Of a stretch of DNA of 64,000 bases, positions 9,227 through 57,590 are shown one piece after another; the stretch's first letter is position 1; each line of letters begins with the position of its first letter. Location: positions 19,535,001 to 19,599,000 of the forward strand of contig NC_092673.1 in NCBI RefSeq assembly GCF_964355755.1, in the 5' to 3' direction. Below the pieces are notes generated by a model. The model saw only the letters and a program-made list of their open reading frames with translations, was not told where the DNA came from and did not search any database. The position numbers and the translations under genes are program-made. The DNA comes from Antedon mediterranea. Lineage: Eukaryota > Echinodermata > Crinoidea > Comatulida > Antedonidae.

Positions 9227-9898
9227 GACACTTCATAGCGCGCTAGCAAACAGCAGAACAATCGTAGCCTTTTTGATTGGAATGCAAATGTATGATCGAT
9301 GCAGCTAGCAAATGAATTGCGCCTAGCAATTTAATTATTTTTGTTGGTGTGTGCATACGTAACCGACGAAAGAGTAATTAAATTTTACCAATCCATAGAG
9401 AGTCAATTAATTCAGTGTGGTATTGAAAATATCATTAATATATTTATTTGTTAATGCACATAACATTTTTACAAGAAAATATAAATACAATCATTATTTT
9501 AACTTTATTTACAATATACAAGTTACTGCATTTTAAACGATTCAGGCAACAGCCAATACTAGAGATCAAAAGAGAAACATGGCAGCAACAAAACATGAGT
9601 TTACATCTCTCGGTGGTGGCCGATGAAAGTGCGTCTCAGTCGCAGTAACACTTTGTTACGCAGTCTTTTGTTTTTCGTAGTGGTCATGTCACGTGTCTCG
9701 TATGCATTAGGCACTTTATGCATGCCTCAGCTCTAGAAAGTACCTGCCTGTTATTAATCTATTTTTAGAAAGGTTGTGGTTGATATTTTGAAGCGTCACG
9801 GATAAGGTTTTAAGCGTCACAGCCGACCGTAAAGCGTCACGGCAGAGAACCCAAGCGTCACGATACGGTGACGCTTCAAGGGCCAGGGGAGAACACTG

Positions 9899-11369: not shown

Positions 11370-12322
11370 AATCTTCATGTAGTACCACCAGCATACAGGG
11401 TCATCTTCATTCAGTAACACCAGCATACAGGTCATCTTCATTCAGTAACACCAGCATACAAGTCATCTTCATTCAGTAACACCAGCATACAAGTCATCTT
11501 CATTTAGTAACACCAGCATACAGGTCATCTTCATTTAGTAACGCCAGCATACAGGTCATCTTCATCTAGTAACACCAGCATACAGGTCATCTTCATTCAG
11601 TAACGCCAGCATACAGGTCATCTTCATACAGTAACACCAGCATACAGGTCATCTTCATTCAGTATCACCATCATACAGGTCATCTTCATTCAGTAACACC
11701 AGCACAGGTCATCTTCATTCAGTAACACCAGCATACAGGAGTCATCTTCATGCAGTAACACCAGCATACAGGAGTCATCTGCATGCAGTAACACCAGCCA
11801 TTCAGTAACACCAGCATTTATATAAGTCATCTTCATTCAGTAATATGCAGGCATACAGGTCATCTTCATTCAGTATCACCATACAGGTCATCTTCATGCA
11901 GACGTAACACCAGCATACAAGTCATCTTTCATTCAGTAACACCAGCATACAGGTCATCTTCATTCAGTAACACCAGCATACAGGAGTCATCTTCATGCAG
12001 TAACACCAGCATACAGGAGTCATCTTCATTCAGTAACACCAGCATACAGGAGTCATCTTCATTCAGTAACACCAGCATACAGGAGTCATCTTCATGCAGT
12101 AACACCAGCATACAGGTCATCTTTCATTCAGTAACACCAGCATACAGGTCATCTTCATTCAGTAACACCAGCATACAGGTCATCTTCATTCAGTAACACC
12201 AGCATACAGGAGTCATCTTCATGCAGTAACACCAGCATACAGGTTATCTTCATTCAGTAACACCAGCATACAGGAGTCATCTTCATGCAGTAACACCAGC
12301 ATACAGGTCATCTTTCATTCAT
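11370..12322. repeat. Minisatellite, 31/33-bp unit, about 30 copies
   Basis: Units are cattcagtaacaccagcata followed by caggtcatctt, with a 33-bp form containing caggagtcatctt. The array ends about 130 bp upstream of the predicted Roco start codon, so it may lie in the promoter or 5'UTR. Open frames through it are artefacts. Confidence 0.95.
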
Positions 12323-12455: not shown

Positions 12456-12463
12456 ATGGAAAG
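12456..12463 (+). CDS. Roco gene exon 1 (8-bp start exon)
   Basis: ATGGAAAG is followed by the donor gtacgt. It is the only nearby ATG whose phase (two bases carried) joins exon 2 in the open frame, giving M-E-R-K-H-L. Alternatives at 12427 and 12434 give other phases. An upstream non-coding exon cannot be excluded. Confidence 0.55.
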
Positions 12464-15400
12464 GTACGTTTTTAACAATTATTTCAAACAAAAATAACCA
12501 GCTCCAATATGTGTTGATATTATTGAAATATGCAACTATTAAAAACAAATTAAAATGTTTGAATAGTTATATTGACATACATATACATAACATACTTTAT
12601 GATCAGAATTTATAGTTCAAACAAAAAGAAAACACTTTGATTTTAAGATATTCTTTTGAGAAAAATACTTCAAACTTTCTTAAAAGATTATAAAATCCAA
12701 AATTCTTTCTTTCTTTAAAAATTATGAAATCATAAATATTACAATTAAAGGGCTTATTCTCATTAAATATAATAATAATAATATTTCCATCAATCATCAT
12801 TCTCAATAAATACACGGGTATAAATGGATTATTTCTTACATTTTGACAGGAAACATTTGGTAGAAGCTTTGTCAAGGAATGATTTGAAAACAATTAAACA
12901 AATCTGTAAGACGCAACCAGATCTTCTGAAATCTATAAATGAGGTATAAAAACAGATATATTTTTATAATATTATCAAAGAAGAAATTCTTTTCATTAAA
13001 GTTTAAAATTATAGAGATTGTAATTTTCTTTATTAGTTATTATAACATTTTTTTATACAATGAATTACAATTATTTTGCAATATCACACTAATGATGTTG
13101 GTATAACCTGCATGCACTGATTAACAACATTAGGCTAAAAATAAAAATATAAATACATACTGATGATGGGGGTATAACCTGCATGTACTGATTAACAACA
13201 TTAGGCTAAAAATAATAATATAAATACACACTGATGATGGAGGTATAACCTGCATGCACTGATTAACCACATTAGGCTAAAAATAATAATATAAATACAC
13301 ACTGATGATGGAGGTATAACCTGCATGCACTGATCAACAACATTAGGCTAAAAATAATAATATAAATACACACTGATGATGGGGGTATAACCTGCATGTA
13401 CTGATTAACAACATTAGGCTAAAACTAATAATATAAATACACACTGATGATGGGGGTATAACCTGCATGTACTGATTAACCACATAGGCTAAAAATAATA
13501 ATATAAATACACACTGATGATGGGGGTATAACCTGCATGTACTGATTAACCACATTAGGCTAAAAATAATAATATAAATACACACTGATGATGGAGGTAT
13601 AACCTGCATGTACTGATTAACCACATTAGGCTAAAAATAATCATATAAATACACACTGATGATGGAGGTATAACCTGCATGTACTGATTAACCACATTAG
13701 GCTAAAAATAATAATATAAATACACACTGATGATGGAGGTATAACATGCATGTACTGATTAACAACATTAGGCTAAAAATAATAATATAAATACACACTG
13801 ATGATGGAGCTATAACCTGCATGTACTGATCAACAACATTAGGCTAAAAATAGTAATATAAATACACACTGATGATGGGGGTATAACCTGCATGTACTGA
13901 TCAACAACATTAGGCTAAAAATAATAGTATAAATACACACTGATGATGGGGGTATAACCTGCATGTACTGATTAACAACATTAGGCTAAAAATAATATAA
14001 ATACACACTGATGATGGAGGTATAACCTGCATGTACTGATTAACAACATTAGGCTAAAAATAATAATATAAATACACACTGATGATGGGGGTATAACCTG
14101 CATGCACTGATTAACCACATTAGGCTAAAAATAATAATATAAATACACACTGATGATGGAGGTATAACCTGTATGCACTGATTAACCACATTAGGCTAAA
14201 AATAATAATAAAAATACACACTGATGATGGGGGTATAACCTGCATGCACTGATTAACCACATTAGGCTAAAAATAATAATATAAATACACACTGATGATG
14301 GGGGTATAACCTGCATGCACTGATTAACCACATTAGGCTAAAAATAATAATATAAACACACTGATGATGGCGGTATAACCTGCATGCACTGATTAACCAC
14401 ATTAGGCTAAAAATAATAATATAAATACACACTGATGATGGAGGTATAACCTGCATGCACTGATTAACCACATTAGGCTAAAAATAATAATATAAATACA
14501 CACTGATGATGGGGGTATAACCTGCATGTACTGATTAACCACATTAGGCTAAAAATAATAATATAAATACACACTGATGATGGGGGTATAACCTGCATGT
14601 ACTGATTAACCACATTAGGCTAAAAATAATAATATAAATACACACTGTTGATGGAGGTATAACCTGCATGTACTGATTAACCACATTAGGCTAAAAATAA
14701 TAATATAAATACACACTGATGATGGGGGTATAACCTGCATGTACTGATTAACCACATTAGGCTAAAAATAATAATATAAATACACACTGATGATGGGGGT
14801 ATAACCTGGATGCACTGATTAACCACATTAGGCTAAAAATAATAATATAAATACACACTGATGATGGAGGTATAACCTGCATGCACTGATTAACCACATT
14901 AGGCTAAAAATAATAATATAAATACACACTGATGATGGAGGTATAACCTGCATGTACTGATTAACAGCATTAGGCTAAAAATAATAATATAAATACACAC
15001 TGATGATGGGGGTATAACCTGCATGCAGTGATTAACCACATTAGGCTAAAAATAATAATATAAATACACACTGATGATGGAGGTATAACCTGCATGCACT
15101 GATTAACAACATTAGGCTAAAAATAATAATATAAATACACACTGATGATGGGGGTATAACCTGCATGCACTGATTAACAACATTAGGCTAAAAATAATAA
15201 TATAAATACACACTGATGATGGAGGTATAACCTGCATGCACTGATTAACAACATTAGGCTAAAAATAATAATATAAATACACACTGATGATGGGGGTATA
15301 ACCTGCATGTACTGATTAACAACATTAGGCTAAAAATAATAATATAAATACACACTGATGATGGAGGTATAACCTGAACCACATTAGGCTAAAAATAATA

Positions 15401-18400
15401 ATATAAATACACACTGATGATGGAGGTATAACCTGCATGTACTGATTAACAACATTAGGCTAAAAATAATAATATAAATACACACTGATGATGGAGGTAT
15501 AACCTGCATGCACTGATTAACAACATTAGGCTAAAAACTAAAAACATGAATAGAATATGATTTTCATCGAGGCAAATGGTTTAAATTAAATTTTTTATCG
15601 TTAATATCTAACTTAACTTAATTATGATATTGGTTTCATTGTGTGTTAAAAATCAGTACTGAAAGTATTTACAAACTTTTCTAGATGCCGTAGAACTCCT
15701 TTTTAGAGTGTGCAATGTTATTCTTGATGGTTGATAGGGTACTCTTCTTACTCTCCTTACTGGTGAAAATAGTTATCTATGGGAGGGTTCAGGATTTTAT
15801 GATAGCGGCTGTGATAGAGAAAACCCACCACCTTTAGTTCCAACCTTTTTGGGACTTTTAGATAAAATAAGAAACTTTTAGTTGCTTTGACCGTAGGATA
15901 TGTGAATCTACCTATAATACCACAGTCCTTTTTATGGTATCCTCTTACAACCTTCTGATCCCCTCTTTAAAGAATAACATTTTTTACCATCATTAATCTG
16001 ACTTAAAATACGTACGTACGAACTAACCGTTATATTAAATCATTTATCGTTAAGTAAATATTAGTGTTAGCAGATAGATGTTTCATTAGGTTATATGCAT
16101 TATCATGCATATAACCTATTGATTCTGTTAGAATCTTTATTTATTAATTTATTCCTAAGCACTATTGTGTCCATCAATTAAAGAGATCCTTTTCCAGCAT
16201 TTTTTTTTGCAAACATTTTGCCACAAATGGAAGAGAAATGTAAATAATGTTTAGTTTATAGTGGTTTCCAAAATCTAAAAATGTTCGAGCAATGCAATTG
16301 GAAAAAGAAATTTAACATGAAATTATTCTTTTCAAACAGTGCCGTATCTTATGACTTTTTGGAAAAAATGATTCTATAAAGTTGCCATTTAAAATGTGAT
16401 ATACTAGCAAGTGCCCACAGATGGTTCTCGAATACATAAACTTTGGTAAATAACTGAAAATTGTCTAAGTCGCACTGTACACAAAGCAAATAAATACAGA
16501 TATGATGTAATTTATTTAGTCAAATATAATTGTCATCCTGAGAATTACCTTAATTTTGTTTATTACATGGTATTGTTCACCAAATTCCTGTCTTGGTACA
16601 TTTGATGATGGGATGGTATCAGGCTTCATGATATGATGTGATTTTCATTGAGGCAAATGGTTTAAACTAAATTTGTTTTAATCGTTAATATCTAATATCT
16701 TAATAGCTTAATTATGATAGTCGTTTCATTGGGTGTTAAAAAGTATGTACCAAAAGTATGTACCAATTTTTCTACCATTGAGTAAAAATTCTAGAAGGTG
16801 CACTTTATTTACTGAAATTTCCTATTACCTAAATTTATATAAATTCATTATACTTCTTATTGGCCTCATATTTTTAATGCTGAACATTTGTTTGTACAAT
16901 TTTGTGAAATATGTATTTTATTAATGTTCAAATTTTGTGATTGATATTGTACAGTAAGTAGATTTAATGACTAATAACTTACATTAAGTAAATAGGCTAA
17001 CAATCACTAGATCTGATCCATGGTAAGATATAGTGACGTGTCTCATACAACATGGGACACCAGCAGCATTGCAAAATAAGGTAATGTACAGGGATTTGCT
17101 AGTGTAATAGGCTAACATTGTATAGATGCTGTAGTAAACCATTCAATGAGAGAAAAAAATAAACATACTAACAAAAATCAAACTAAACAAACGAAATAAA
17201 AATAATAACTAAATAGTTTATATGATTTATGATAACTGATTTAAAGTATACAGTTACCTATCAAATAACATATATCTTTAATTTTCTTAATAAACAAAAA
17301 AATCGACTTGTAATTTTTCACGCTGCTGCTCTAGCCCGCTACGTCACAAGAGATAAATCATTCAGATATAAAGCAAGCAGCAGTTATAGTACTTGACACT
17401 GACATTTTTGCAAAAAATGATTCTCGACTATAATTTATAGGTACCACCTGTTGAATCCAATAAACGTCTGGGAAAAGAGTCTAACGACAAATTCCAAAGC
17501 ATTTCTGGTATTTATGAGTCCCATGATATTACTATAATTCGCTGTCAGATAATCATTGAATTATTATCAAAACAGTCCATTGAAGTTTTTGTTTGTAATA
17601 GGATACTTGAAGTATATAGGCCTGATGATGTGACCCCCAGACTTGACCTTAGCAATAACAATAAACGAGCAGGTTTTTTGTAAGAAATATTCTTGTTTAT
17701 ATTCAGGTGAATCAGTATAATTTTGTTTACATATTTTTGACCGTAAAACAAATATAAATTGGTCATATGTAGCTGTAAAGATAACAATGATTGACAATGG
17801 TCTAATTAATTGTAAAGATGAAATAAAATGGGACAACTACATTGATTAATAATAAAATAACAAATAAAAAAGGTTTATGTTTCAAAAAATTAATAGAATC
17901 TGATTTTAATAAACATATAAAAAACATATATCCCCCTATCTTGATTTGCATATATCTAATCACTCCTTGGCTGTAGTTCAGGAAGTTAAAGACCCCTTCC
18001 CTGCAATTTTGGACGTTTTTTGGAAAATAATACATATATATTACTTTAAAAACATTAAACCATGTCATTCCTTGTCTTAAATGTACGTTTTATGGTAAAT
18101 TATGATAAAAAGTGAGAAACAATGCACTACCTAAGTAGCTCGCGGCGATCGACCTCTCGTGGACGATCTTAGGCCTAGCCTAGCTAGGCTTAGTTTTGTA
18201 GGCCTAGCTGGTAAACATCGGTAACGTACGAACATCGTACGCGAGCTATATACCTAGCCTGACGTTGCATAGTTGCTGCATTAATTGTCTTTCTATTTTT
18301 GCCAGACTCCGTTGATAAAAATTGGGGAAAACCCGGTATTTTCGCTGAAAAGTTAGGAGTCTTCCATTTGTTTTGGCCTCACGATCGATCGAAAAGTGGG

Positions 18401-21400
18401 CGAATTACAGGTGAAAAACAAAAATATCAATCCGCGCGCAATGCATTTTGGGATTTATAGCGGGCCGCTATAATTATTAGAATTGACTTATTTTTCACAT
18501 TTTTAACCGTTTAAAGACGAAAAAAGTTATCGCAATAGGACCATATAGTATTATTTTTACATTAAATATAGTTTGTGATCTTAAATTAGATCTAAAAAAC
18601 GTAGGGAATGGGGCTTTAACTTGTTAGGTGTAATCATTCAAAATAATTTAAAGTGGCAAAGCCATGTAGATAACATTTGTATTAAAGCTAACAAGAAAAT
18701 GTTTATGATACGTAAGTTGAGAGAAGCAGGTCCTAATAGTAATGAACTTATTTCTGTTTATAAAGGTTATTTGAGACCGGTGCTTGACTATGCAGCCCCT
18801 TTGTGGCATGCAGGTCTTGCGCAGGGACACGTGAATCAGGTGGAAAAGATTCAGAAGCGTGTCTGCAAAATTGTGTTGGGCAAAGAATATACAACATACA
18901 CGGATTCTCTTGCCATTTTAAATCTTCAACCACTCCACACTAGAAGATGGCACTCTTGCAAGGTTTTTGCCTCTAAAGCACACGCCTCTGGTCAATTCTC
19001 AACCTGGTTCCCTGCCCCTCAGTATAGATCCTGCATGACCCTTAGACATAATCGTAAAGTGGAAAACTATAGTTTCAAAACTAAACGCTTCCAAACTAGT
19101 CCTGTCCCTTTTATGGTTGAACTTTTGACGCCTCTGGTCAATTCTCCACCTGGTTCCCTGCCCCTCAGTATAGATCCTGCATGACCCTTAGACATAATCG
19201 TAAAGTGGAAAACTATAGTTTCAAAACTAAACGCTTCCAAACTAATGAAAACATTTCTTCTGGTTTCGATTCGTATAATAATATAAGTAGTTCTTTGATA
19301 GTAAACCAATAAAACTTACGTTGGCAAGACAGTTTCGTCTAGCTGTCAGCTTGACTTCTTCAGTTGCTATGATGCGTTATGGCGCCGACTGGTCTCCTTT
19401 CCAGCCACTAGATGATTTTGTTGTGTAGCCTAGGGGACCAGTCGTCGTCAGAAGCTGATCGTAAATGTGAGATAGTTGGTGCGCGCCTTCGTCTCTATTC
19501 ATCTTTGTATTTTTATTTTGCTTTCTTATGCTGATGCTTTCTTTAATTTTACGTTTAAGCCAAACTTGTTCTTTGTGTAGTACCTCTATCTTATCCCAGT
19601 TAGGTATGTGGTTGTGTGTGGTCGTATGGTCCGTGATTGCTGATTTATGTAAAATAGAGGACGAAACTTTCCGTGATGCACGCGTCTGCATGTTCGTAGA
19701 TGACATTATAACAATAATTCCCAAGGATGCGACACAACCATTATTACAACACTTAAACAAAATCGATGATGACATTAATTTCACTTGCGAAGAAATGTCC
19801 TTAACAGACAACTCTATCCCATTCTTGGATACGCTAATTTTAGTTGATGGGGAAGGCAACATCAACACTAAAGTTTTTAGGAAAGCCACCAACACAAATC
19901 AATACTTGGACTTTAACTCACATCATCCTCTACAACACAAGTTATCCGTTATCCGCACACTTCTACACAGATGTAACACGATAATCACAAATAATGCAGA
20001 CAAACAGAACATAACTGAGATGATACATACTTCACTTAAACAATGTAACTACCCTACATGGACGATTAGAAAGGTACAACGTAACCTAGATAAACAGACA
20101 CACAACCCGAAACAGAAGACATAAGAGGGTCGATATCCATCCCATATATTCAAGGCCTGTCAGAGAAAATCAAGAGAACATTAAAAAAATATAACATACG
20201 AACATACTTTAAACCATCTAACAAAATTAAAAACTTAATCGTCCGACCGAAAGATAAAGCATGCAAAGAGGATTCCTGTGGTGTTGTCTACAAAGTGGGG
20301 TGCACCAACTGTGAGATGGTGTACATTGGGGAAACGGGTAGGGCACTCAAAACCAGAATTAAAGAGCACAAGAAAGATGTTGAGGAAAACACACAGAACA
20401 TGCAGACGCGTGCATCACGGAAAGTTTCGTCCTCCATTTTACATAAATCAGCAATCACGGACCATACGACCACACACAACCACATACCTAACTGGGATAA
20501 GATAGAGGTACTACACAAAGAACAAGTTTGGCTTAAACGTAAAATTAAAGAAAGCATCAGCATAAGAAAGCAAAATAAAAATACAAAGATGAATAGAGAC
20601 GAAGACGCGCACCAACTATCTCACATTTACGATCAGCTTCTGACGACGACTGGTCCCCTAGACTACACAACAAAATCATCTAGTGGCTGGAAAGGAGACC
20701 AGTCGGCGCCATAACGCATCATAGCAACTGAAGAAGTCAAGCTGACAGCTAGACGAAACTGTCTTGCTAACGTAAGTTTTATTGGTTTACTATCAAAGAA
20801 CTACTTATATTGCTTCCAAACTAGTCCTGTCCCTTTTATTGTTGAACTTTTGAACAAACTGTAACTTTTTTTTTTTTTTTTGCCTGTTTTTTTTAAACTA
20901 ACTGCAGTCTAACTTATTCGTTTTTATATATTTATGTTTTGTTGATAGTGACTATTGTTTTAATATTTTTTATAGTGTAATACATATGCAATTCAGCCTT
21001 GTGCTGCCATGTATGTAATTTGTATGTGAATTTTGAATAAATATACCGATATATATAAATAACAAATAATTATTAATTAATAACCTGCTCCCTCCCTTAC
21101 CTTTCAAACAAATGCTTTTGTAATAGTAATAGGCTAACAATCTCTAGATCTGATCCATGGTAAGATATTCTATTTTGTTCTCATTTATCAATCATGTCAA
21201 TTAGGATTATTGACCACATTATTTAGCAGTAATTCTTGCTATGGTTTGGGTTGACAAAAAAAAACCCAATTTCACATAATGTCTGTTGTCAGTATTATAC
21301 ACCAGTAACATTGCAAAAGAAGGTAATGTACAGGGATTTGCTAGTGTAATAGGCTAACATTCTATAGATATGCTGTGGTAAACCATTCTATTTTGTTCTA

Positions 21401-54400: not shown

Positions 54401-57356
54401 AATGTATGCAGTGGAACCCCCACTGTCAATATTCCATGTGAGACTATAGTTAAACAATGTATGCAGTGGAACCCCCACTGTCAATATTCCATGTGAGACT
54501 ATAGTTAAACAATGTATGCAGTGGAACCCCCACTGTCAATATTCCATGTGAGACTATAGTTAAACAATGTATGCAGTGGAACCCCCACTGTCAATATTCC
54601 ATGTGAGACTATAGTTAAACAATGTATGCAGTGGAACCCCCACTGTCAATATTCCATGTGAGACTATAGTTAAACAATGTATGCAGTGGAACCCCCACTG
54701 TCAATATTCCATGTGAGACTATAGTTAAACAATGTATGCAGTGGAACTCCCACTGTCAATATTCCATGTGAGACTATAGTTAAACAATGTATGCAGTGGA
54801 ACTGTCAATATTCCATGTGAGACTATAGTTAAACAATGTATGCAGTGGAACCCCCACTGTCAATATTCCATGTGAGACTATAGTTAAACAATGTATGCAG
54901 TGGAACTGTCAATATTCCATGTGAGACTATAGTTAAACAATGTATGCAGTGGAACTGTCAATATTCCATGTGAGACTATAGTTAAACAATGTATGCAGTG
55001 GAACCCCCACTGTCAATATTCCATGTGAGACTATAGTTAAACAATGTATGCAGTGGAACCCCCACTGTCAATATTCCATGTGAGACTATAGTTAAACAAT
55101 GTATGCAGTGGAACTGTCAATATTCCACCACAGACTCTACAAAGGCATTGCATTATGTACTATAAACATTTTCCTATAGTAAATGTACATCTCATTTTAA
55201 TCATTTTTAGGCTGTAGTGATGAGGACCAAAATGAAAGCACATCATCCAGTCACCAATCTCAACCAAGAGAAGGTAAGTTACTAGTAGATAAAGATTATG
55301 ATACGAAAAGAGTTTCTCAACCTTACAACTTTACTTCCTTTATGGAAACACATGGTATATACACCTACCCTGACTTTACTAGTGTTTATTTGCACTCTAT
55401 GAAAACCTTTAAACAATATAATCATATATTATAGTCATGATGATATGATACTGAAATTGATGTTTAAATGATGAATTTCTGGGATTTTATTTTTCATTCA
55501 TTCATCTTCTTATTTCGAAATACCATGGTGACATAATATATCCATAGCAAAAGAGGAAAAAAAATCTTAATCTAAGAGCTCATAGAACAAAAACATATAA
55601 ATCTAAATATAAAGTCAATGCAACAAGGCATTCCATTGTATTTGCATTCTTGACACATTAAGAATGTGGCGATTAATAAAAAGAATAATACTAATTATTA
55701 ACATAAGATAAAAAAAATAATGCGAGTGAGTATTTGTTTACTGTAGTACTTTGTTTCTAAAGCTCATTTTTCTACATTATTTAAAAAAAGTACAGAAAGG
55801 TAGTTGATTTTCCACAATTTATTTGAACATTTTATCACAACAATTTTCTATGTGATCACTTGATGACACCTAAAGCCTGTTTTGCTGTCGACGTTGTTCG
55901 ACGCTATCGTTAACAATAATCGCCGATCTCATACGTAAACATTGAATTTTAACGATTTACAGGAAAAGGTACTTTTTTAACTAACCACGACGATACAAAT
56001 CATCTGCGATTTACAGGAAAAGGTATAATAATCGATGGTAATCAACGCTACAAGTCGCGATCGTTGACAATCGCAAGAGTTGAATCCAGTTCAACTCTAG
56101 CCGATATCGCAATGCTAAAATGTAAGAACTGACCAATCATCTTGTCGATACAGCATATGACGTCACATAATTAGTGGAAAATTCTGAGATTACATTTATT
56201 TTTGTTGCATTGCGGCTCGATCAGAGCTAGGCCTAGCCATGCCAAAGTGAATATAAAATGATGTTCCGGAAAGTAGGCGTAGGGATATTAGGTAGGTCTA
56301 AGTCATCAGCCTAGTCCAAAATGCTGATTTGACTAGGATAGGCCTACTGAGAATGAAGAACCATCAGTATAGAGATAGTAGTATGCCTAGGCCCACGTCT
56401 GCTACAGTGTGAGCCTACTAGTACTAGTAGTAGAGGCAGCGGAATCCTCTATTCATTTTTTCATGTTACGACGGCATTTCAACTCTAACGTTCAACGCTA
56501 GAAATCAAATGTTCGCGCTATCGTTATAATTTCAACTTGATAGTTTAAAAACGATCAAGTTGAACTTGTAACGATTAACGATGATAGCGTCGGCGTATAA
56601 CGTCGACAGGAAAACAGGCTTATGATCAAAAACGTTTGTGATCACATTTTCAAATAAAACTACCTTGTCTGTACATCTTTTGGACATTACATATTTTCTT
56701 ATGCAGCATCATCCTTTTTGTTATTTTATTACTTGAAAATTATTATGGTGTTTTAATAATTCATATTCATAATATTCAAACATTGATTATGATTTAACAG
56801 CATTGATAATTATGCTAAATATATATTGAAAACTTGCTTTTCTTTAACCATAGGTTTCTCAGAGGATGATTTTAAACAGTTGATTGCAGACTTTGCAAAA
56901 TGGTTTGATGACCGTGGACTTCTTAACAGGCTACAAGTTCTATTCATAGAAATAGTAGACGACATTGAAGCAGTGAAAAGGGTTACAAGTACAACTGAAC
57001 TGTTAGCTCTGTTAACTGCAAATGGGCAATTGAGTCAAACAAATCTGTCTGTACTGTATGATGCAATAAAAGTAACTGCACAATTTGGCTTCGAGTCGGT
57101 CATTAAAGAAAAGCTTCGTCCTTTCAAGAATATCAAGAAGCGTAAGGTAGCATCATTTTCATCGCAAACAAAAAAGATTTTTAATCTGGGAAAAAGTCTT
57201 AGTGATTCAGATAAAGAAACTCTTGATGTACGATACAACTTTCCTGTTGTTAAGGGGTATACTGACAGCTGGAGTCTGATATTAGATTTTGTTCCTCGAG
57301 GGTTGCTGAGTGAAGACAAAATAGATGAGGTTAATAAGTTGTTGAAAAGAAATTGA
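12456..57356 (+). CDS. Roco-family protein: ANK repeats, Roc, COR, membrane hairpin, DED-like (26 coding exons)
   Basis: Predicted to encode a multidomain GTPase scaffold of about 1,249 residues, likely in death or innate-immune signalling by analogy with DAPK1-type Roco proteins. Domains in order: helical lead (1-34), six ankyrin repeats (35-248), half repeat and linker (249-307), Roc with P-loop 344-351, switch I T369, WDHGGQ 491-496 and THKG 579-582, COR (about 640-1002), hydrophobic hairpin (about 1010-1048), death-effector-like domain (about 1090-1170) and a further helical C-terminus. The exons listed separately below keep one frame throughout, except for one extra base at about 45829. 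Introns hold transposons and minisatellites, and one intron is 9.6 kb. No kinase domain is seen. Whether this allele makes full-length protein is uncertain, and no transcript evidence is available. Confidence 0.8.
12850..12943 (+). CDS. Roco gene exon 2 (lead into ankyrin repeats)
   Basis: 94 bp between ttgacag and gtataa. It reads KHLVEALSRNDLKTIKQIC then KTQPDLLKSINE, the pattern of a capping ankyrin helix pair. It ends in phase 0, joining directly to the DGDTPLH start of each ankyrin exon. No other open frame spans it. Confidence 0.7.
13086..15536. repeat. Minisatellite, 71-bp unit, about 34 copies (intron 2)
   Basis: Units contain tacacactgatgatggggg, tataacctgcatgtactgat and taacaacattaggctaaaaa plus an AATAAT-rich spacer. 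Copies differ by a few bases (g/a, t/c, ttaac/tcaac), with occasional deletions, e.g. near 15375. Reverse-strand frames with repeated Ser-Val-Cys-Ile are artefacts. Confidence 0.95.
15551..15690. repeat. Detached fragment of an ankyrin-array unit
   Basis: The segment gattttcatcgaggcaaatg through aaaatcagtactgaaagtat matches the spacer of the array units near 16640, 23310, 24665, 26225 and 27735. It marks the left limit of the segmental duplication. Confidence 0.7.
16088..16180. repeat. Short repeat starting with a perfect hairpin
   Basis: aggttatatgcat (16088-16100) and atgcatataacct (16105-16117) are perfect inverted arms around tatc. The following ~65 bp (ttagaatctttatttatt) match 48161..48260, which starts with nearly the same hairpin. 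A diverged reverse copy lies at about 52420-52500. Confidence 0.65.
17032..17080 (+). pseudogene. Truncated ankyrin exon remnant
   Basis: Only the 3' half survives (agtgacgtgtctcatacaac to gcaaaataag, then the donor gtaatg). The acceptor and the TPLH half are gone, replaced by the intronic ctgatccatggtaagatat. It cannot be spliced in as a normal exon. Confidence 0.75.
17441..17683 (+). CDS. Unrecognised 80-codon open segment
   Basis: Open from just after ttatag at 17440 to TAA at 17681. It reads VPPVESNKRLGKESNDKFQ, later IYESHDITIIRCQIIIELL and EVYRPDDVTPRLDLSNNNK. Composition is protein-like, with no homopolymer runs, and an acceptor-like sequence precedes it. It lies in a ~375-bp insertion (about 17315-17690) absent from other array units. 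It could be a terminal exon or transposon fragment. I do not recognise it. Confidence 0.3.
   Translation, partial: VPPVESNKRLGKESNDKFQSISGIYESHDITIIRCQIIIELLSKQSIEVFVCNRILEVYRPDDVTPRLDLSNNNKRAGFL
17990..18615. mobile_element. TTAA-flanked MITE inside the LINE
   Basis: Ends are AGACCCCTTCCCTGC on the left and the imperfect complement GTAGGGAATGGGGCT on the right, each abutting TTAA (17986-17989, 18616-18619). Removing the element and one TTAA restores the LINE frame (Q-E-V-N-L-L-G-V). It has no transposase frame. The TIR sequence differs from the MITE at 6894, so it is a separate family. Confidence 0.75.
18621..19244 (+). pseudogene. LINE reverse transcriptase C-terminal fragment
   Basis: The protein carries the post-RT motif LLGVIIQNNLKWQSHV, then LRPVLDYAAPLWHAGL and VEKIQKRVCKIVLG, typical of CR1/Jockey-group ORF2 C-termini. 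Coding continues upstream of the MITE (DLHISNHSLAVVQEV at about 17950-17985). A 146-bp tandem duplication (starts 18985 and 19131) breaks the C-terminus, and the Penelope-like element cuts it at 19244. Remaining 3' sequence resumes at 20812. No catalytic RT core is present, so it is inactive. Confidence 0.75.
19245..20811 (+). mobile_element. Penelope-like element with inverted 5' part
   Basis: A 12-bp target duplication GCTTCCAAACTA flanks it (19233-19244 and 20812-20823). The 3' two thirds encode the end of the RT and the GIY-YIG endonuclease. The 5' part, 19277-19690, is the near-perfect reverse complement of the 3' end, 20400-20806. Such terminal inverted arrangements are common in Penelope-like elements. 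The RT start is missing. Confidence 0.85.
19690..20714 (+). pseudogene. Penelope-like RT end and GIY-YIG endonuclease, frameshifted
   Basis: The catalytic box FVDDI starts at about 19693, followed by the RT thumb region (FLDTLILVDGEGNINTKVFR). The frame ends at TAA near 20122, but the linker continues in another frame (IPYIQGLSEKIKRTLKKYN), then CGVVYKVGCTNC and MVYIGETGRALKTRIKEHK, the GIY-YIG core with its Cys pair. One frameshift at about 20117 separates the two. RT motifs upstream of FVDD are absent, so the copy is dead. Codons before 19690 belong to the inverted segment and are not original coding. Confidence 0.8.
21239..21323 (+). pseudogene. Ankyrin exon remnant with internal deletion (left)
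   Basis: The unit runs from tggtttgggttgacaaaaaa to gttgtcagtattatacacca and gcaaaagaag, then gtaatg. Everything from the acceptor to the middle of the exon is deleted, leaving about 23 bp of exon end. The same junction occurs at 28171-28256. Confidence 0.75.
21542..21649 (+). CDS. Roco gene exon 3 (ankyrin repeat 1)
   Basis: 108 bp, phase 0 at both ends, between tttccag and gtaaatg. It encodes DGDTPLHSYLRTGYTSTLAI through QHGAPVALQNK: the TPLH turn, inner helix and GAP loop of an ankyrin repeat, with three residues more than the usual 33. Confidence 0.85.
21874..21981 (+). CDS. Roco gene exon 4 (ankyrin repeat 2)
   Basis: 108 bp, phase 0/0. It encodes DGNTPLHSYLGRGYRSTLEI then VTCLIQHGAPVALQNK. 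It lies only 332 bp after exon 3, with nearly identical flanking intron, a recent short-unit duplicate. Confidence 0.85.
22202..22309 (+). CDS. Roco gene exon 5 (ankyrin repeat 3)
   Basis: 108 bp, phase 0/0. It encodes DGNTPLHSYLGSGYRSTLEI then VTCLIQHGTPLALQNK, very close to exon 4. It is the third member of the 330-bp short-unit array. Confidence 0.85.
23655..23762 (+). CDS. Roco gene exon 6 (ankyrin repeat 4)
   Basis: 108 bp, phase 0/0, between tttccag and gtaatg. The TPLH turn has changed to TLLH (DGNTLLHFYLGNEYTPTLEI), the most diverged intact copy. It is the first member of the 1.5-kb long-unit series. Confidence 0.8.
25201..25305 (+). CDS. Roco gene exon 7 (ankyrin repeat 5)
   Basis: 105 bp, phase 0/0. 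It encodes YGDTPLHLYLRSTAPTLEIV then TCLIQHGAPVALQNK, one codon shorter than earlier copies; the first residue is Y, not D. The frame is preserved. Confidence 0.85.
26739..26843 (+). CDS. Roco gene exon 8 (ankyrin repeat 6)
   Basis: 105 bp, phase 0/0, acceptor cttttcag. It encodes SGDTPLHSYLRSGYATLSIV then TCLIQHGAPVELQNK. It is the last intact copy in the array. Confidence 0.85.
28171..28256 (+). pseudogene. Ankyrin exon remnant with internal deletion (right)
   Basis: It has the same deletion junction as 21239-21323 (ttgtcagtattatacaccag, then gcaaagaag, gtaatg). Only the last ~20 bp of the exon remain and no acceptor reads into them. Confidence 0.75.
28733..28817 (+). CDS. Roco gene exon 9 (final partial ankyrin repeat)
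   Basis: 85 bp between tttaatag and gtaagtg, in phase 0, out phase 1. It encodes DGNTLVSLLESNRRIERERK then TEILNFLEG, a degenerate repeat that begins with the array's DGNT motif. It lies outside the duplicated units and is probably the ancestral distal exon. Confidence 0.75.
29106..29310 (-). repeat. Possible 3' end of a retroelement
   Basis: On the minus strand the segment ends with AATAAAGAGATTGATTTG followed by AT-rich sequence, like a LINE tail with a poly(A) signal. No coding part is seen, so the class is uncertain. Confidence 0.35.
29394..30413. repeat. AT-rich block flanked by ~125-bp direct repeats
   Basis: 29394-29517 and 30283-30413 share ggcaaacaatttacgatagg, aggagataaatattgaatat and tttgtttccacaatg. 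Between them, 29600-30240 is built from variants of tagatagctattag and tctactta, many inverted. It may be a transposable element with internal palindromic repeats. I see no coding content. Confidence 0.6.
30414..31196. other. Intron sequence
   Basis: No exon is seen between exons 9 and 10 here. A minus-strand reading near 30600-30640 has an AATAAA-containing tail (cacaataaagataacttg), possibly another retroelement end. Confidence 0.35.
31197..31289 (+). CDS. Roco gene exon 10 (linker)
   Basis: 93 bp between tttttttag and gtgagt, phases 1/1. It encodes DLPSTVDEQFQTQFQKPTND then KQITKLRKPESG, a hydrophilic linker between ankyrin repeats and Roc with no motif. It is accepted because its phases fit both neighbours and the frame is open. 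Confidence 0.65.
31654..31813 (+). CDS. Roco gene exon 11 (Roc P-loop)
   Basis: 160 bp between ttttcag and gtaagt, phase 1 in, 2 out. It encodes a charged helix (ARELEYQEAYKEALKGG), then a strand and the Walker A motif GQEGVGKT, followed by CLINACLGK. The P-loop binds the nucleotide phosphates in the Roc GTPase; K350 and T351 are the canonical lysine and hydroxyl residue. Confidence 0.9.
32107..32192 (+). CDS. Roco gene exon 12 (Roc switch I)
   Basis: 86 bp between tctcag and gtaaac, phase 2 in, 1 out. It encodes IFEEEHKVTDGIAVIRTVST then TWTEAKAD. T369 in KVTDGI is the expected switch I threonine that coordinates magnesium. The donor is weaker than the others. Confidence 0.85.
32528..32592 (+). 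CDS. Roco gene exon 13
   Basis: 65 bp between tctacag and gtatgt, phase 1 in, 0 out. It encodes NPLKQYTKFVTDKLREKKTI, a basic amphipathic helix inside the Roc insertion between switch I and WDHGGQ. Confidence 0.7.
32873..32993 (+). CDS. Roco gene exon 14 (Asp/Asn-rich)
   Basis: 121 bp between tttatcag and gtatgt, phase 0 in, 1 out. It encodes IDMKPPTDDVEDDDGIVVDY, then a low-complexity Asp/Asn tract (KDDNNDDYKNNDNNDYTND). The DNA is a decayed GAT/AAT repeat, and similar GATGAT-rich DNA lies in the next intron (33280-33390). The segment probably forms a disordered loop in Roc. Confidence 0.65.
33465..33622 (+). CDS. Roco gene exon 15 (Roc G3 motif)
   Basis: 158 bp between actacag and gtaagt, phase 1 in, 0 out. 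After a charged helix (DVIKELEEKKEDPLEE) it encodes FNIWDHGGQLIYHGIHR. WDHGGQ matches the Roc DxGGQ switch II signature; D492 should contact magnesium through water. Confidence 0.9.
34033..34122 (+). CDS. Roco gene exon 16 (Roc strand after switch II)
   Basis: 90 bp between tttgcag and gtaagt, phase 0/0. It encodes MFMTLQALYIVVFDLSVDLN then DPAVYIDSNG, the Roc beta strand with FDLS. The next exon lies 9.6 kb away beyond a transposon-filled intron. Confidence 0.9.
35565..36090. repeat. Tandem repeat inside the TIR element, about 160-bp unit
   Basis: Units share tatggatttgcccaaat, aacccaagggccggtc and atggacc..., starting near 35570, 35722, 35895 and 36052. The series resumes on the far side of the gypsy element at about 42545-42665, showing the retrotransposon landed in this array. 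Confidence 0.75.
36093..36880 (-). repeat. 3' LTR of the gypsy element
   Basis: 788 bp, read on the minus strand from TGTAATGGATCGG to GATTCCCGAACC. It differs from 41757..42544 at about three visible positions (near 36413, 36472, 36579). Small open frames in it are spurious. Confidence 0.9.
36928..38136 (-). pseudogene. Gypsy integrase, N-terminus deleted
   Basis: 402 residues from the first ATG, but in-frame coding extends a little upstream (QLLKRRCFWPGM). The Cys pair CFSC of the zinc domain is present, its His pair is not. The catalytic core shows D44 (AIDF), D103 (HSDQGR) and E139 (NGQCERFN) with exactly 35 residues between the last two. The C-terminus has a GPF/Y-like module (VGGPLNYVNRRRL). 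It is in a different frame from gag-pol. Confidence 0.85.
38192..41359 (-). CDS. Gypsy Gag-Pol polyprotein (Gag, protease, RT, RNase H start)
   Basis: A single 1,055-residue frame. Gag spans about 1-310 and ends in two CCHC knuckles (CYNCGKNGHTKSDC at 277-290, CWFCRGRGHYSYAC at 297-310). The aspartic protease has DTG at 409-411 (LGCILDTGAEASIIP). The RT has VDYRKLN, LDLSHGFFQ and the catalytic box YLDD at 816-819. RNase H starts with EVDAS (D972) and reaches FTDHNPLANL before an abrupt end at 1055. The usual RNase H tail, connection and integrase zinc domain are missing: only about 55 bp separate this frame from the integrase frame. Gag and Pol share one frame with no stop between them. Confidence 0.9.
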   Translation of the reverse strand: MSLGQSKSEATASGDGVNDVIAALTNVLKGVSVQKAPPIKLVKFKGVPRSPGDLTLKEWLEDFRIYCDHYSLGDDDRYDTLISHLGGCAKDEVKCSMSMCENGKNVKAAIRILELAFKSEDSVASYSSAFYSRQLLPGETLAEYSLSLMKLYSQLVEASYTSEQSALRHLQDTTLKQRLVDGVRDPTVKRELRRIELAFRGKSFFDMREEVLELYKVDIVRTNPRAHGVECNERPSELSEVKRELQALKKQISEIQRSQFISSPPKFNQHSTGPLKCYNCGKNGHTKSDCEIPSGLCWFCRGRGHYSYACPHKNRSSNSNTPGIQRSASDTPTQDIINTVSKSQTNHPIPTGNVEREVHIPVVATDNNGNMSNVQSLKCSDVVLVDKLVARSPCTILRIGSTELGCILDTGAEASIIPSSVYNKQLKSIVGELGSVNGLFMNVIGVCGVEVPIEGYVEIPIVIGEQKLTGSFLVVSDAVTVTNHSNEYPVLIGCNILRELQGFHLLRDLSHVTATHVDAPWNRKAEILLQVDEDESSILVSLQHSDVTIPCDSHSEIVDGSVKSDIDDCKFSDHTQSRLVSVGSVRKLYDINHSYSNSFCGTELNSESQQLPPGVIINGNLDCVETQQVTNLLSKYNHVFSHSGFDVGKCDVIPHVINLKDETPIRLPYRRIPPHSISSVKSMLQEMLDQGIIRPSKSEFASPIVLVKKKDGSLRMCVDYRKLNFQTLKDSFPLPRIDEVLEVLTGSCYFSTLDLSHGFFQIIMADESINKTALRVPWGLYEFVRMPQGLSNSPGTFQRVMEYVLGDMNLTQIVLYLDDILIFSSSFKQHLSRLENVLSRLYKYGLKVKGKKCDFFKTEVTYLGHVISSAGVAVDYGKIEKILTWPTPKSITELKSFLGLSSYYRKFICNYAKIAAPLHLVTRLSDTQAGKAHSFRWTEIEEAAFVELKNALTKPPVLVYPKFDEPFVIEVDASLKGLCACLLQESNGSLHPIAYASRSLRGAECRYPDLSSFKLELLGLKWAVVDKFASYIQGSKVTIFTDHNPLANLKTKFMS
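41757..42544 (-). repeat. 5' LTR of the gypsy element
   Basis: 788 bp, nearly identical to 36093..36880. It would hold the promoter of the element on the minus strand. Its outer flank continues the tandem repeat of the host TIR element. Confidence 0.9.
43685..43864 (+). CDS. Roco gene exon 17 (Roc G4 motif)
   Basis: 180 bp, phase 0/0, between ttgacag and gttaat. An earlier donor (gtaagc at 43827) gives phase 1 and a stop in exon 18, so the later donor is chosen. It encodes WTNLQFILSYILSVYSHS and PTILIVGTHKGKLGK. The G4 motif is THKG at 579-582, where Roc proteins normally have THxD. Confidence 0.8.
44089..44340 (+). CDS. Roco gene exon 18 (end of Roc, start of COR)
   Basis: 252 bp, phase 0/0, between caaccag and gtaaat. 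It encodes AKKAFKMIRDAIKQKEFQKN, then YFAVENS (the G5-like region of Roc), a helix (DLRKVIDDLMTALEKEVPL) and the COR entry LKWMRF. Nothing interrupts the frame. Confidence 0.85.
44879..45073 (+). CDS. Roco gene exon 19 (COR)
   Basis: 195 bp, phase 0/0, between tctttag and gtaagt. It encodes SFLLNFLYDLGEIVYRPDN and VLDPMQLVEIVTAF, matching the COR pattern of helix-LG-I-Y/F then L-DPxxLV. COR domains dimerise Roco proteins. Confidence 0.85.
45349..45543 (+). CDS. Roco gene exon 20 (COR)
   Basis: 195 bp, phase 0/0, between ttttttag and gtaggt. It encodes LDKGILEEKLLRKLWKER and FEFLVALMIQLGFICER, the COR winged-helix-like segment (KGIL...LLxxLW, then LxxLGFIC). Confidence 0.85.
45778..46072 (+). 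CDS. Roco gene exon 21 (COR), carries a one-base frameshift
   Basis: 295 bp between atttcag and gtactg, while both neighbours need phase 0. The entry frame gives ESVEKRSFFTPCFQDIK, the usual COR F-x-PC segment, then stops at TGA 45829-45831. The downstream frame gives VKPVPDDSQSISVYYDF, DFKGYLPDVLFPYMI and so on to the donor. One extra base near 45829 explains both the stop and the 3n+1 length. It may be a real disabling mutation, an allele or a sequence error. Confidence 0.75.
46168..46239 (+). CDS. Roco gene exon 22
   Basis: 72 bp, phase 0/0, between tttttcag and gtatgt. It encodes VTIKRTNAPNEASNLEPSSE then ACKE, a strand followed by a polar loop within the C-terminal part of COR. Confidence 0.7.
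46931..47147 (+). CDS. Roco gene exon 23 (end of COR)
   Basis: 217 bp between atttgtag and gtaaga, phase 0 in, 1 out. It encodes VLLTIQKSFEPSKDGGRRGI then QYERCILCDVCSDGS and a Cys-rich end with LPCTKTRKYLRMDVARYK. Paired cysteines (CILCDVC) resemble the zinc-ribbon-like tail seen after COR in related proteins. Confidence 0.8.
47945..48121 (+). CDS. Roco gene exon 24 (hydrophobic membrane segment)
   Basis: 177 bp between atttcag and gtaaga, phases 1/1. It encodes a 39-residue hydrophobic stretch (1010-1048) with a central GIPAGIAG break, then WCIYKMDVLYYYTRIFGG. The length suits two short membrane helices in a hairpin or one long helix. Exons 23 and 24 both end in R-x-FGG at a phase 1 donor, so exon 24 can be skipped without changing the frame. 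Confidence 0.75.
48161..48260. repeat. Short hairpin repeat, second copy
   Basis: aggttatatgcat, tatc, atgcatgtaacct with the following ttagaatcttttttta block match 16088..16180. One arm base differs. It abuts the LINE remains in the same intron. Confidence 0.6.
48300..50965 (+). mobile_element. Decayed CR1/L2-like LINE (intron 24)
   Basis: Fragments of one plus-strand ORF2 appear in order: endonuclease end, RT and C-terminal region. The element ends with aaataaattcaatcaatcaa, a short tandem ATCA-type tail typical of CR1/L2 elements. Several frameshifts and a deletion across the catalytic box make it inactive. Confidence 0.8.
48330..50684 (+). pseudogene. LINE ORF2 remains (endonuclease end and reverse transcriptase)
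   Basis: 48380-48530 encodes the APE endonuclease end (SLIDHILVN, LSDHVVIYC). 48743-49003 is the RT lead (RDKFLYAYKK, LWKHLGKLGF). 49034-49459 reaches the RT motif NYRPISILP. 49618-49800 has VLIDVKKAFDSVNHNIL. 49920-50684 holds WFNDNKLSIHPDKTESILFG and the C-terminal domain to LFKHKVNEYFKN. The YADD box that should lie near 49865 is missing: coding jumps from FLCYIND-like codons to IASGTDAR. At least four frame changes are present. Confidence 0.8.
51335..51727 (-). mobile_element. 5S rRNA-derived SINE
   Basis: On the minus strand a full-length 5S-like head is followed by a body containing ccttaggcaaggtgcttta and attgcctcgtcattcgg, a type of conserved SINE body seen in invertebrates. Such 5S-headed elements are classed as SINE3. 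The 3' boundary is approximate, and I cannot assign the body domain (Deu, Nin or other) without comparison. Confidence 0.75.
51607..51727 (-). pseudogene. 5S rRNA-like sequence (head of the SINE)
   Basis: On the minus strand it begins atatggccatactgcgttga and continues with accgattctcgtcagatcac, aaagttaagcaacattgggc and ggcgggtgctg, aligning end to end with animal 5S rRNA. The box A region is well kept and box C is diverged. Downstream SINE body and substitutions argue against a functional 5S gene. Confidence 0.8.
52773..53160. repeat. Tandem repeat, 84-88-bp unit, about 4.5 copies
   Basis: Units start gctgctattagctgtgatat and contain cttaccagtagtagtactat and tctatacattgttacaacat. The first unit lacks acat. 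The repeated hydrophobic frame through it is a by-product of the 84-bp spacing. Confidence 0.9.
53162..54141 (-). repeat. Dispersed repeat, copy 2 (inverted)
   Basis: It is the reverse complement of 5157..6268, lacking about 140 bp that correspond to 5785-5925. Divergence is moderate, with several small indels. Confidence 0.75.
54209..55126. repeat. Minisatellite, 55-bp unit with a 46-bp variant, about 17 copies
   Basis: The unit is ccatgtgagactatagttaa, acaatgtatgcagtggaac, cccccactgtcaatatt. The 46-bp form lacks nine bases around cccccact. Inner copies are almost identical, so the array is young or homogenised. It ends about 80 bp before exon 25. Confidence 0.95.
55211..55273 (+). CDS. Roco gene exon 25 (polar linker)
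   Basis: 63 bp between atttttag and gtaagt, phases 1/1. It encodes CSDEDQNESTSSSHQSQPRE, a Ser/Gln/Glu-rich linker between the membrane segment and the C-terminal domain. Support is splice-site quality and phase fit only. Confidence 0.65.
55872..56622. mobile_element. TIR element (MITE) in intron 25
   Basis: The left end AAGCCTGTTTTGCTGTCGAC and the right end GTCGACAGGAAAACAGGCTT are inverted repeats; the similarity continues inward through gacgctatcgttaac-like sequence. About 750 bp, no open frame. The flanks read TAA on the left and TAT on the right, so a Harbinger-like 3-bp target duplication is possible but not clean. Confidence 0.65.
56854..57356 (+). CDS. Roco gene exon 26 (death-effector-like domain, C-terminus)
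   Basis: 503 bp from accatag to TGA. It encodes FSEDDFKQLIADFAKWFDDR, later ELLALLTANGQLSQTNLSVL and YDAIKVTAQFGFESVIKEKL: the helix pattern and the L-x2-L-x2-x-G-x-LS-xxNLSxL signature resemble a death-effector domain. A second helical region ends SWSLILDFVPRGLLSEDKI then DEVNKLLKRN and could be a further death-fold half. DEDs bind other DEDs in caspase-8/FADD-type complexes. The fold call is by pattern only; CARD or death domain is the alternative. Confidence 0.7.
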
Positions 57357-57388: not shown

Positions 57389-57590
57389 CAATGGACTGCA
57401 ATAACAAAAAGAAATGATAACAATAATAGTTATTTAAGGATCATTTTGACTACATTTCACACTTCACATGACCTATTGCAGCAGAAACTTTCCGAATTGA
57501 GGTGTCATTTATATAACGATATAACTGTAATATTATTATAAATTATATATAATATTATTCTAATACCGCAATTTAAGTTTCTTCGCTATT

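What the first reader, a model, noticed from the sequence alone, without database searches (positions are those of the whole stretch)
12456..57356. ANK-Roc-COR protein with membrane hairpin and DED-like C-terminus
Twenty-six exons keep consistent phase over 45 kb. Known Roco proteins (DAPK1, MFHAS1, LRRK) combine ankyrin or LRR repeats with Roc-COR, and DAPK1 ends in a death domain. Here the kinase is absent, and a hydrophobic hairpin plus a death-effector-like domain follow COR. I know of no well-described protein with exactly this order, so it could be a lineage-specific membrane-tethered death-signalling Roco GTPase.
Basis: partly seen in the sequence, partly recalled or inferred. Interest (0 to 1): 0.75.

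Follow-up and report, generated by a model that had tools for sequence, protein, structure and literature searches.

The report
Ankyrin-armed Roco GTPase with death-effector tail
This animal gene appears to encode a switch protein that joins a fast-changing ankyrin sensor, a Parkinson-family (Roco) GTPase core, a greasy membrane-like hairpin and a probable caspase-8-style death-effector tail, so it may be an unusual immune or cell-death receptor.

Summary
The gene is real. A 24-exon GT-AG model on the + strand (12456-57356) gives 1173 codons without a stop. Ankyrin, Roc and COR-A exceed Pfam's cut-offs; no kinase matches. A strongly hydrophobic hairpin follows COR. The last exon matches DED only below the cut-off (17.8 vs 35.9 bits). 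Its low-confidence model hits tandem-DED chains (caspase-8, cFLIP, MC159) in 14 of 23 PDB rows, including ranks 1-12, but none is significant and TM-scores are 0.25-0.40. I read it as a probable tandem DED.

Changes between copies are as frequent as in introns and seem to concentrate at ligand-facing positions (p 0.002-0.07 by position set). This resembles brown-algal exon-shuffled LRR-Roco candidate immune receptors (PMC11378527). None of the papers listed by ten searches, judged by titles and abstract starts, describes such a protein. Most likely it is a membrane-tethered death-signalling Roco receptor; sensing, tethering and signalling are inferred. No transcript, species or homologue was available.

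The parts
12456..12463 (+). Proposed exon 1 (8 nt, with ATG); speculative, alternative in-frame start at 12824
   Evidence: Donor score 5.8, frame-consistent with exon 2; no homology support
12850..12943 (+). Exon 2: N-terminal helical cap of the ankyrin array
   Evidence: Acceptor 6.9, donor weak -0.4
21542..21649 (+). Exon 3: one ankyrin repeat, phase 0-0
   Evidence: ANK hits; splice sites
21874..21981 (+). Exon 4: one ankyrin repeat, phase 0-0
   Evidence: ANK hits; splice sites
22202..22309 (+). Exon 5: one ankyrin repeat, phase 0-0
   Evidence: ANK hits; splice sites
23655..23762 (+). Exon 6: one ankyrin repeat, phase 0-0
   Evidence: ANK hits; splice sites
25201..25305 (+). Exon 7: one ankyrin repeat, phase 0-0
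   Evidence: ANK hits; splice sites
26739..26843 (+). Exon 8: one ankyrin repeat, phase 0-0
   Evidence: ANK hits; splice sites
28733..28817 (+). Exon 9: probable C-terminal cap of the ankyrin array
   Evidence: Acceptor 2.8, donor 7.9; begins DGNT like the repeats
31197..31289 (+). Exon 10: linker
   Evidence: Frame-consistent, donor 6.4
31654..31813 (+). Exon 11: start of Roc with P-loop GQEGVGKT
   Evidence: Pfam Ras 342-376; PDB Roco alignment
32107..32192 (+). Exon 12: Roc
   Evidence: Pfam Ras 342-376 runs into it; frame-consistent
33465..33622 (+). Exon 13: Roc with G3 region WDHGGQ
   Evidence: Pfam Roc best stretch 414-458
34033..34122 (+). Exon 14: Roc strand ALYIVVFDLS
   Evidence: Pfam Roc best stretch 414-458; PDB Roco alignments
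43685..43864 (+). Exon 15: Roc with GTHKGKL at the G4 position; donor uncertain
   Evidence: Acceptor 10.0, donor -0.6
44089..44340 (+). Exon 16: end of Roc and start of COR-A
   Evidence: Pfam COR-A stretch 590-727
44879..45073 (+). Exon 17: COR-A
   Evidence: Pfam COR-A 31.1 bits alone
45349..45543 (+). Exon 18: COR-A end
   Evidence: Pfam COR-A 12.3 bits alone, joined score 47.7
45821..46072 (+). Exon 19: probable COR-B by position
   Evidence: Follows COR-A; no Pfam match
46168..46239 (+). Exon 20: probable COR-B by position
   Evidence: Frame-consistent; no Pfam match
46931..47147 (+). Exon 21: end of COR region, cysteine-containing
   Evidence: Frame-consistent, donor 6.9
47945..48121 (+). 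Exon 22: hydrophobic hairpin, residues 927-985
   Evidence: Kyte-Doolittle up to 2.54; acceptor 4.0, donor 5.4
55211..55273 (+). Exon 23: short polar linker
   Evidence: Acceptor 2.9, donor 7.9, frame-consistent
56854..57356 (+). Exon 24: probable tandem DED, ends at the stop codon
   Evidence: Pfam DED 17.8 bits, below cut-off; AF2 pLDDT 57; Foldseek tandem-DED chains in ranks 1-12, 14 and 20 of 23
17026..17147 (+). Decayed ankyrin-exon copy; about 53 nt of the exon's 5' part missing
   Evidence: blastn 90.4% over 125 columns, starting at query 204 (exon = query 151-258)
21180..21471 (+). Decayed ankyrin-exon copy; 111 nt missing, about 85 of them exon
   Evidence: blastn pieces flank absent query 125-235
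28115..28271 (+). Decayed ankyrin-exon copy; same stretch missing
   Evidence: blastn pieces flank absent query 125-235

Best explanation
An animal Roco-family protein that works as a receptor or scaffold. An N-terminal array of about six full ankyrin repeats plus caps binds a ligand. The central Roc-COR unit acts as a nucleotide-dependent dimerisation switch. A hydrophobic hairpin dips into a membrane so that both ends stay in the cytosol. A C-terminal probable tandem death-effector domain then recruits other DED proteins (FADD/caspase-8-type), leading to cell death or NF-kB-type signalling. Repeat number and binding surface can change quickly because every repeat is a phase 0-0 exon in duplicating DNA. 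Shown: gene model; ANK, Roc and COR-A; hydrophobic segment; exon duplication with intact and decayed copies. Probable: tandem DED. Inferred: ligand sensing, membrane insertion, death signalling, immune role.
For: Open 24-exon model with GT-AG introns. ANK, Roc and COR-A above Pfam cut-offs. Roc-COR segment matches solved proteins 4wnr (E 6.7e-10), 3dpu (1e-8; both recalled as prokaryotic Rocos) and LRRK2 (5.6e-4). Hairpin hydropathy. Last exon: Pfam DED E 0.0039; PDB Foldseek ranks 1-12, 14 and 20 of 23 are caspase-8/cFLIP/FADD-complex or MC159 tandem DEDs over 153-173 columns, top probability 0.84. A length-matched control from a retroelement-like ORF gave unrelated mixed folds, top probability 0.23 in the 50 of 242 rows shown. 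Six intact and three decayed ankyrin exons. Four ligand-facing codons differ at 28.3% of compared sites, the other 32 at 8.7%, flanks 10.8%. Precedents: Trichoplax ROCOs with CARD and death domains (PMC4104024), Aplysia TIR-Roc-COR proteins (PMC9334734), exon-shuffled LRR-ROCOs in brown algae (PMC11378527).
Against: No transcript, no homologue, species unknown. DED is below Pfam's cut-off; the model is single-sequence with pLDDT 57; Foldseek E-values are 0.19 or worse, TM-scores of the DED rows 0.25-0.40 with rmsd 8.6-10 A, and the control's best E (0.29) is not much worse. The second half alone has no Pfam match. Against viral structures the model did not favour DEDs: MC160L at rank 9, probability 0.15. 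Overall pN/pS 1.29 has a bootstrap interval of 0.65-3.6, the other 32 codons are not significantly below the flanks (p 0.26), and with all seven recalled DARPin positions p is 0.074: diversifying selection is not established. The Roc G4 position reads THKG, not THxD (motif recalled), so guanine specificity may be lost.
Confidence: 0.5

Rival explanations
1. Two genes were joined: an ANK-Roc-COR-hairpin gene ending near 48.1 kb and a separate DED gene at 55-57 kb, with retroelements between.
For: The 7.1-kb intron 48122-55210 holds retroelement-like ORFs (48581-50684) and a 5S-like element. Reading past the exon 22 donor meets a stop within a few codons, so a shorter protein is possible. Exon 23 is only 63 nt.
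Against: Exons 22, 23 and 24 share phase 1 junctions; donors 5.4 and 7.9, acceptors 2.9 and 4.4. The open frame around the last exon (56793-57353) contains no methionine, so a separate DED gene would still need another upstream exon.
Confidence: 0.15
2. The ankyrin exon copies are mostly neutral junk from unstable tandem DNA; few are spliced in, or they are mutually exclusive.
For: Exon and flank divergence are equal, 10.9% vs 10.8%; pN/pS 1.29 not different from 1; three copies have decayed; the window is rich in tandem arrays, 41 rows.
Against: All six intact copies keep frame, splice sites and phase; exon lengths are 108 (four) or 105 nt (two); changes concentrate in repeat residues 1-16, p 0.010, a split chosen after seeing the alignment.
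Confidence: 0.3
3. The last exon is a helical domain but not a DED (another death-superfamily fold or an unrelated bundle).
For: Pfam score below cut-off; no significant PDB sequence match (three hits, best E 0.55); low model confidence; low TM-scores; viral structure library gives no DED consensus.
Against: Two lines point to DED: Pfam DED E 0.0039 and coherent tandem-DED fold matches over the whole exon.
Confidence: 0.3
4. An ordinary intracellular Roco scaffold (trafficking, cytoskeleton) with no immune or death role.
For: Such roles are described for Roco proteins (PMC4104024, section 5 part 1); ankyrin repeats are generic binders.
Against: A probable death-fold tail and the duplicating repeat exons fit receptor-type Rocos better.
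Confidence: 0.25

Closest known systems
DAPK1 (Roco group 3)
   Same: Ankyrin repeats (recalled), Roc-COR and a C-terminal death-superfamily domain
   Different: No kinase; a probable (tandem) DED instead of a death domain; hydrophobic hairpin; ankyrin array is N-terminal and made of near-identical one-exon repeats
Exon-shuffled LRR-ROCO genes of brown algae (PMC11378527; Ectocarpus also in PMC4104024)
   Same: Roc-COR with a repeat array in which each repeat is one exon of constant phase; repeat exons also found in noncoding DNA (PMC4104024); variation at ligand-facing sites (suggestive here)
   Different: Ankyrin instead of LRR; phase 0 instead of phase 2; death-effector tail; alternative splicing untested here
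Trichoplax ROCO proteins with CARD or death domains (PMC4104024)
   Same: Animal Roc-COR proteins combined with death-superfamily domains
   Different: The text names CARD, death, TPR, LRR and AAA; 'ankyrin' and 'death effector' do not occur in it; figure not seen; sequences not compared
Aplysia TIR-Roc-COR proteins (PMC9334734)
   Same: Roc-COR combined with immune signalling domains in an invertebrate
   Different: TIR/LRR with Mbt or EF-hand rather than ankyrin-hairpin-DED
Caspase-8 / cFLIP tandem DED
   Same: Whole last exon aligns by fold over 160-173 columns in 13 of 14 such rows
   Different: No caspase or caspase-like domain found; sequence similarity below threshold; TM-scores 0.25-0.40
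Fungal NLRs with ANK repeats (PMC4986451)
   Same: Near-identical ANK repeats with variable sites mainly on the binding face
   Different: NACHT/NB-ARC instead of Roc-COR; repeat identity here averages 78%, below their 85% criterion

Membership tests
Roco (Roc-COR) family | Roc domain | tested here: met
   Pfam Roc 50.1 bits, cut-off 27
Roco (Roc-COR) family | COR directly after Roc | tested here: met
   Pfam COR-A 47.7 bits, cut-off 35.3, residues 590-727
Roco (Roc-COR) family | COR-B subdomain | tested here: inconclusive
   No COR match in residues 747-926
Roco (Roc-COR) family | GTP/GDP binding and dimerisation | not testable with these tools
   P-loop GQEGVGKT and WDHGGQ present; G4 position THKG lacks the usual Asp (sequence; motifs recalled)
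DAPK1 group | Kinase before Roc-COR | tested here: not met
   No kinase profile match in the 1173-aa product; crude motif scan of the locus empty, no positive control
DAPK1 group | C-terminal death domain | tested here: not met
   No death-domain match up to E 10; only DED, below cut-off, for the last exon
LRRK group | LRR, kinase after COR, WD40 | tested here: not met
   No such Pfam matches among 14 families
LRR-Roc-COR group (MFHAS1, prokaryotic, plant) | LRR before Roc-COR | tested here: not met
   Ankyrin instead of LRR
Tandem DED proteins | Two DED folds in series | tested here: inconclusive
   Pfam DED 17.8 bits below 35.9 for the exon, none for its second half; fold matches coherent but E 0.19 or worse, TM 0.25-0.40
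Exon-shuffled repeat ROCOs | One repeat per exon, constant phase | tested here: met
   Six exons, all phase 0-0
Exon-shuffled repeat ROCOs | Duplicated copies, some noncoding | tested here: met
   Nine copies, three decayed
Exon-shuffled repeat ROCOs | Diversifying selection at ligand-facing residues | tested here: inconclusive
   p 0.0023 (4 sites), 0.035 (6), 0.074 (7); flank resampling p 0.016 for 4 sites; pN/pS interval spans 1
Exon-shuffled repeat ROCOs | Alternative splicing of repeat exons | not testable with these tools
   No transcripts

The most novel reading that the evidence does not exclude
Animals evolved, in parallel with brown algae, an exon-modular repeat-armed Roco immune receptor. 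Its ankyrin specificity is renewed by duplicating phase-0 single-repeat exons, and a Roc-COR switch at a membrane directly drives a caspase-8-like tandem DED, making one polypeptide from sensor to death platform.
Probability: 0.3. Interest if true: 0.85.

Novelty: new variant of a known kind. Interest (0 to 1): 0.6.

Why it matters
What most Roco proteins sense and do is poorly understood. A Roco with a fast-changing ankyrin sensor and a probable death-effector tail would tie Roc-COR switching to cell-death or NF-kB signalling in one molecule. It would be an animal counterpart of the brown-algal Roco candidate immune receptors, and domain-swap and forced-dimer tests would become straightforward.

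Tried and rejected
Considered and rejected: (a) DAPK1 or LRRK orthologue: no kinase, LRR or WD40 match in the product; a crude motif scan was empty but had no positive control. (b) Chance ORFs: excluded by Pfam scores and by the gain in COR-A score on splicing. (c) Single DED: the fold matches cover the whole 166-residue exon, so tandem is preferred. (d) Viral relatives: a viral-contig scan with 433 of the 1173 residues found one pattern match and no relative; fold search of the last exon against viral models was uninformative. (e) NCBIfam: nothing for the last exon; nine families for Roc-COR up to E 1, best small_GTP at 24.2 bits below its cut-off of 42.5. (f) PDB sequence search with the last exon: three hits, best E 0.55, two of them described as de novo designed. 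PDB search with the whole product was swamped by ankyrin-type proteins (best 60 of 446 shown), hence. (g) pN/pS over whole repeat exons is not different from 1. (h) Conservation test on 13 recalled ANK core positions: not significant, p 0.23. (i) Literature: ten searches. Most lists were complete, but (15 of 43; 2 of 3; 10 of 180; 10 of 41) were cut. No listed title or abstract start described an ANK-Roc-COR-DED protein; the library is open-licence PMC only, so absence from print is not shown.

The species could not be determined: no eukaryotic collection is searchable, Rfam found only one 5S-like match and ARAGORN no tRNA.

Weaknesses of my tests: splice-site weights were typed from general recall; the DARPin contact positions were recalled and chosen after I had seen the alignment; no correction for several tests; the fold control (retroelement-like ORF, pLDDT 36, mixed alpha/beta) is imperfect because it was less confident and not all-helical.

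On the second reading of this report I added TM-scores and rmsd, the methionine-free last exon, the cut literature lists and the corrected extent of the decayed copies. Two rival odds moved for that reason: non-DED tail 0.25 to 0.30, two genes 0.20 to 0.15.

Full report
Check of the observation. Stop-to-stop ORFs on the + strand of the window show a string of short coding-like segments. Using a simple GT/AG scoring scheme (weights from general recall) I fixed exon borders around them and obtained a 24-exon model, 12456-57356, 3522 nt, 1173 codons before the stop, all 23 introns GT-AG and all phases consistent. Four splice sites score below zero and several more near 1; the donor of exon 15 competes with a stronger site that would break the frame.

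Domains. Pfam on the spliced product gives Ank 92.2 bits (cut-off 21.1), Roc 50.1 (27) and COR-A 47.7 (35.3); no kinase, LRR, WD40 or death domain appears among the 14 families listed up to E 10. COR-A scored 31.1 bits in exon 17 alone and 12.3 in exon 18 alone, so the joins add signal. The Roc-COR segment matches solved proteins, best 4wnr (E 6.7e-10) and 3dpu (1e-8), recalled as prokaryotic Rocos, and more weakly LRRK2 (5.6e-4 and worse). The P-loop is GQEGVGKT and the G3 region WDHGGQ; the G4 position reads GTHKGKL, without the usual aspartate (motif recalled). COR-B was not detected.

Hairpin. Exon 22 encodes residues 927-985. All 32 windows of 19 residues starting at 930-961 have Kyte-Doolittle means above 1.4, maximum 2.54; elsewhere only windows at 443 and 658-659 exceed 1.4. 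A central GCGIPAG could be a turn. Both the Roc-COR side and the tail would then lie on the same side of a membrane. Insertion itself is inferred.

Tail. The last exon gives Pfam DED at 17.8 bits, E 0.0039, below the cut-off of 35.9; its second half alone gives nothing. A single-sequence AlphaFold model has pLDDT 57 and ten helices. Foldseek against the PDB returned 23 rows up to E 10; ranks 1-12, 14 and 20 are tandem DEDs of caspase-8/cFLIP/FADD complexes or MC159, aligned over 153-173 columns, top probability 0.84, best E 0.19, but TM-scores of only 0.25-0.40 and rmsd of 8.6-10 A. A control of equal length from a retroelement-like ORF in the window gave 242 rows, of which the 50 shown are unrelated folds with top probability 0.23 and best E 0.29. 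E-values therefore do not discriminate; coherence, probability and coverage do. Against viral models the DED signal was not recovered, except MC160L at rank 9. I conclude probable tandem DED.

Ankyrin array. Six exons (21542, 21874, 22202, 23655, 25201, 26739) each encode exactly one repeat, start and end in phase 0, and lie in a 328-bp tandem array and larger duplicated units. Three further copies are decayed, each lacking part of the exon (17026-17147; 21180-21471; 28115-28271). Repeat peptides are 66-92% identical, mean 78%. Exon divergence (10.9%) equals that of the flanking intron (10.8%); pN/pS is 1.29, bootstrap 0.65-3.6. Replacement changes concentrate in residues 1-16 (98.2 of 139.2, p 0.010; split chosen after seeing the data). 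At the positions randomised in designed ankyrin proteins (recalled), p is 0.0023 for the four in the turn and first helix, 0.035 for all six and 0.074 with the seventh. The four codons differ at 28.3% of compared sites against 8.7% for the rest; resampled flank blocks reach the former with p 0.016, and the latter is not significantly below the flanks, p 0.26. A test of 13 recalled core positions was not significant (p 0.23). Diversification is therefore suggestive, not shown.

What is known. Roco proteins are grouped as LRR-Roc-COR, LRR-Roc-COR-kinase and DAPK1-type (PMC6337361, passages seen); this protein fits none. [quoted passage not shown] Aplysia has TIR-Roc-COR proteins (PMC9334734, passages). 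In brown algae each LRR of ROCO genes, except two of four groups, is one 72-nt exon of constant phase, with exon shuffling, alternative splicing and four positively selected concave-side sites (PMC11378527, abstract, passages and section 11 seen). In one fungal NLR locus positively selected ankyrin sites map, with one exception, to the concave face (PMC4986451, passages and section 17). Passages of PMC8195603 and PMC6321704 gave no Roco-DED protein. The arrangement here joins these themes with a death-effector tail. In ten searches no listed title or abstract start describes an ANK-Roc-COR-DED protein; four lists were cut and the library is open-licence only.

Mechanism. I propose ligand binding by ankyrin repeats, a Roc-COR switch, hairpin tethering, and nucleation of DED assembly by the tail, at confidence 0.5. 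Rivals are two fused gene models (0.15; the open frame of the last exon has no methionine), neutral ankyrin exon copies (0.3), a non-DED tail (0.3) and a non-immune scaffold (0.25); these are not mutually exclusive.

Noticed in passing
36093-42056, minus strand ORFs 36928-41404: LTR retroelement inside intron 14: two direct repeats reported as 300 nt, 100% identical, 5664 nt apart, with RT, RNase H, protease, zinc-knuckle and integrase matches; Gypsy-like by content (class name recalled), probably a young insertion.
   Followed up: partly
19471-20714, plus strand: ORFs resembling a Penelope-like element; weak GIY-YIG match, 19.3 bits against a cut-off of 22.6; class name recalled.
   Followed up: partly
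48581-50684, plus strand: LINE-like ORFs in the intron between hairpin and tail exons; two of the four were scanned and gave no RT Pfam match, so the class rests on how the peptides look.
   Followed up: partly
51607-51727, minus strand: 5S rRNA match, 59.1 bits (gathering 38), full model length; could be a 5S-derived SINE or pseudogene.
   Followed up: partly
988-1371, plus strand: ZU5 domain fragment, 36.9 bits (cut-off 21), 11 kb upstream of the modelled start; ZU5 occurs in death-domain proteins such as UNC5 and PIDD (recalled). Possibly a neighbouring immune-type gene or a missed upstream part.
   Followed up: no
43685-43864, plus strand: Roc G4-position motif reads THKG instead of THxD (recalled), which might alter guanine specificity.
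   Followed up: no
1644-2482, 11371-12321, 13080-15552, 54231-55114, 57585-59304: Many long minisatellite arrays (units 36, 31, 71, 55 and 97 bp).
   Followed up: no
8807-9232, minus strand: zf-RVT fragment of another retroelement (28.9 bits, cut-off 27.5).
   Followed up: no
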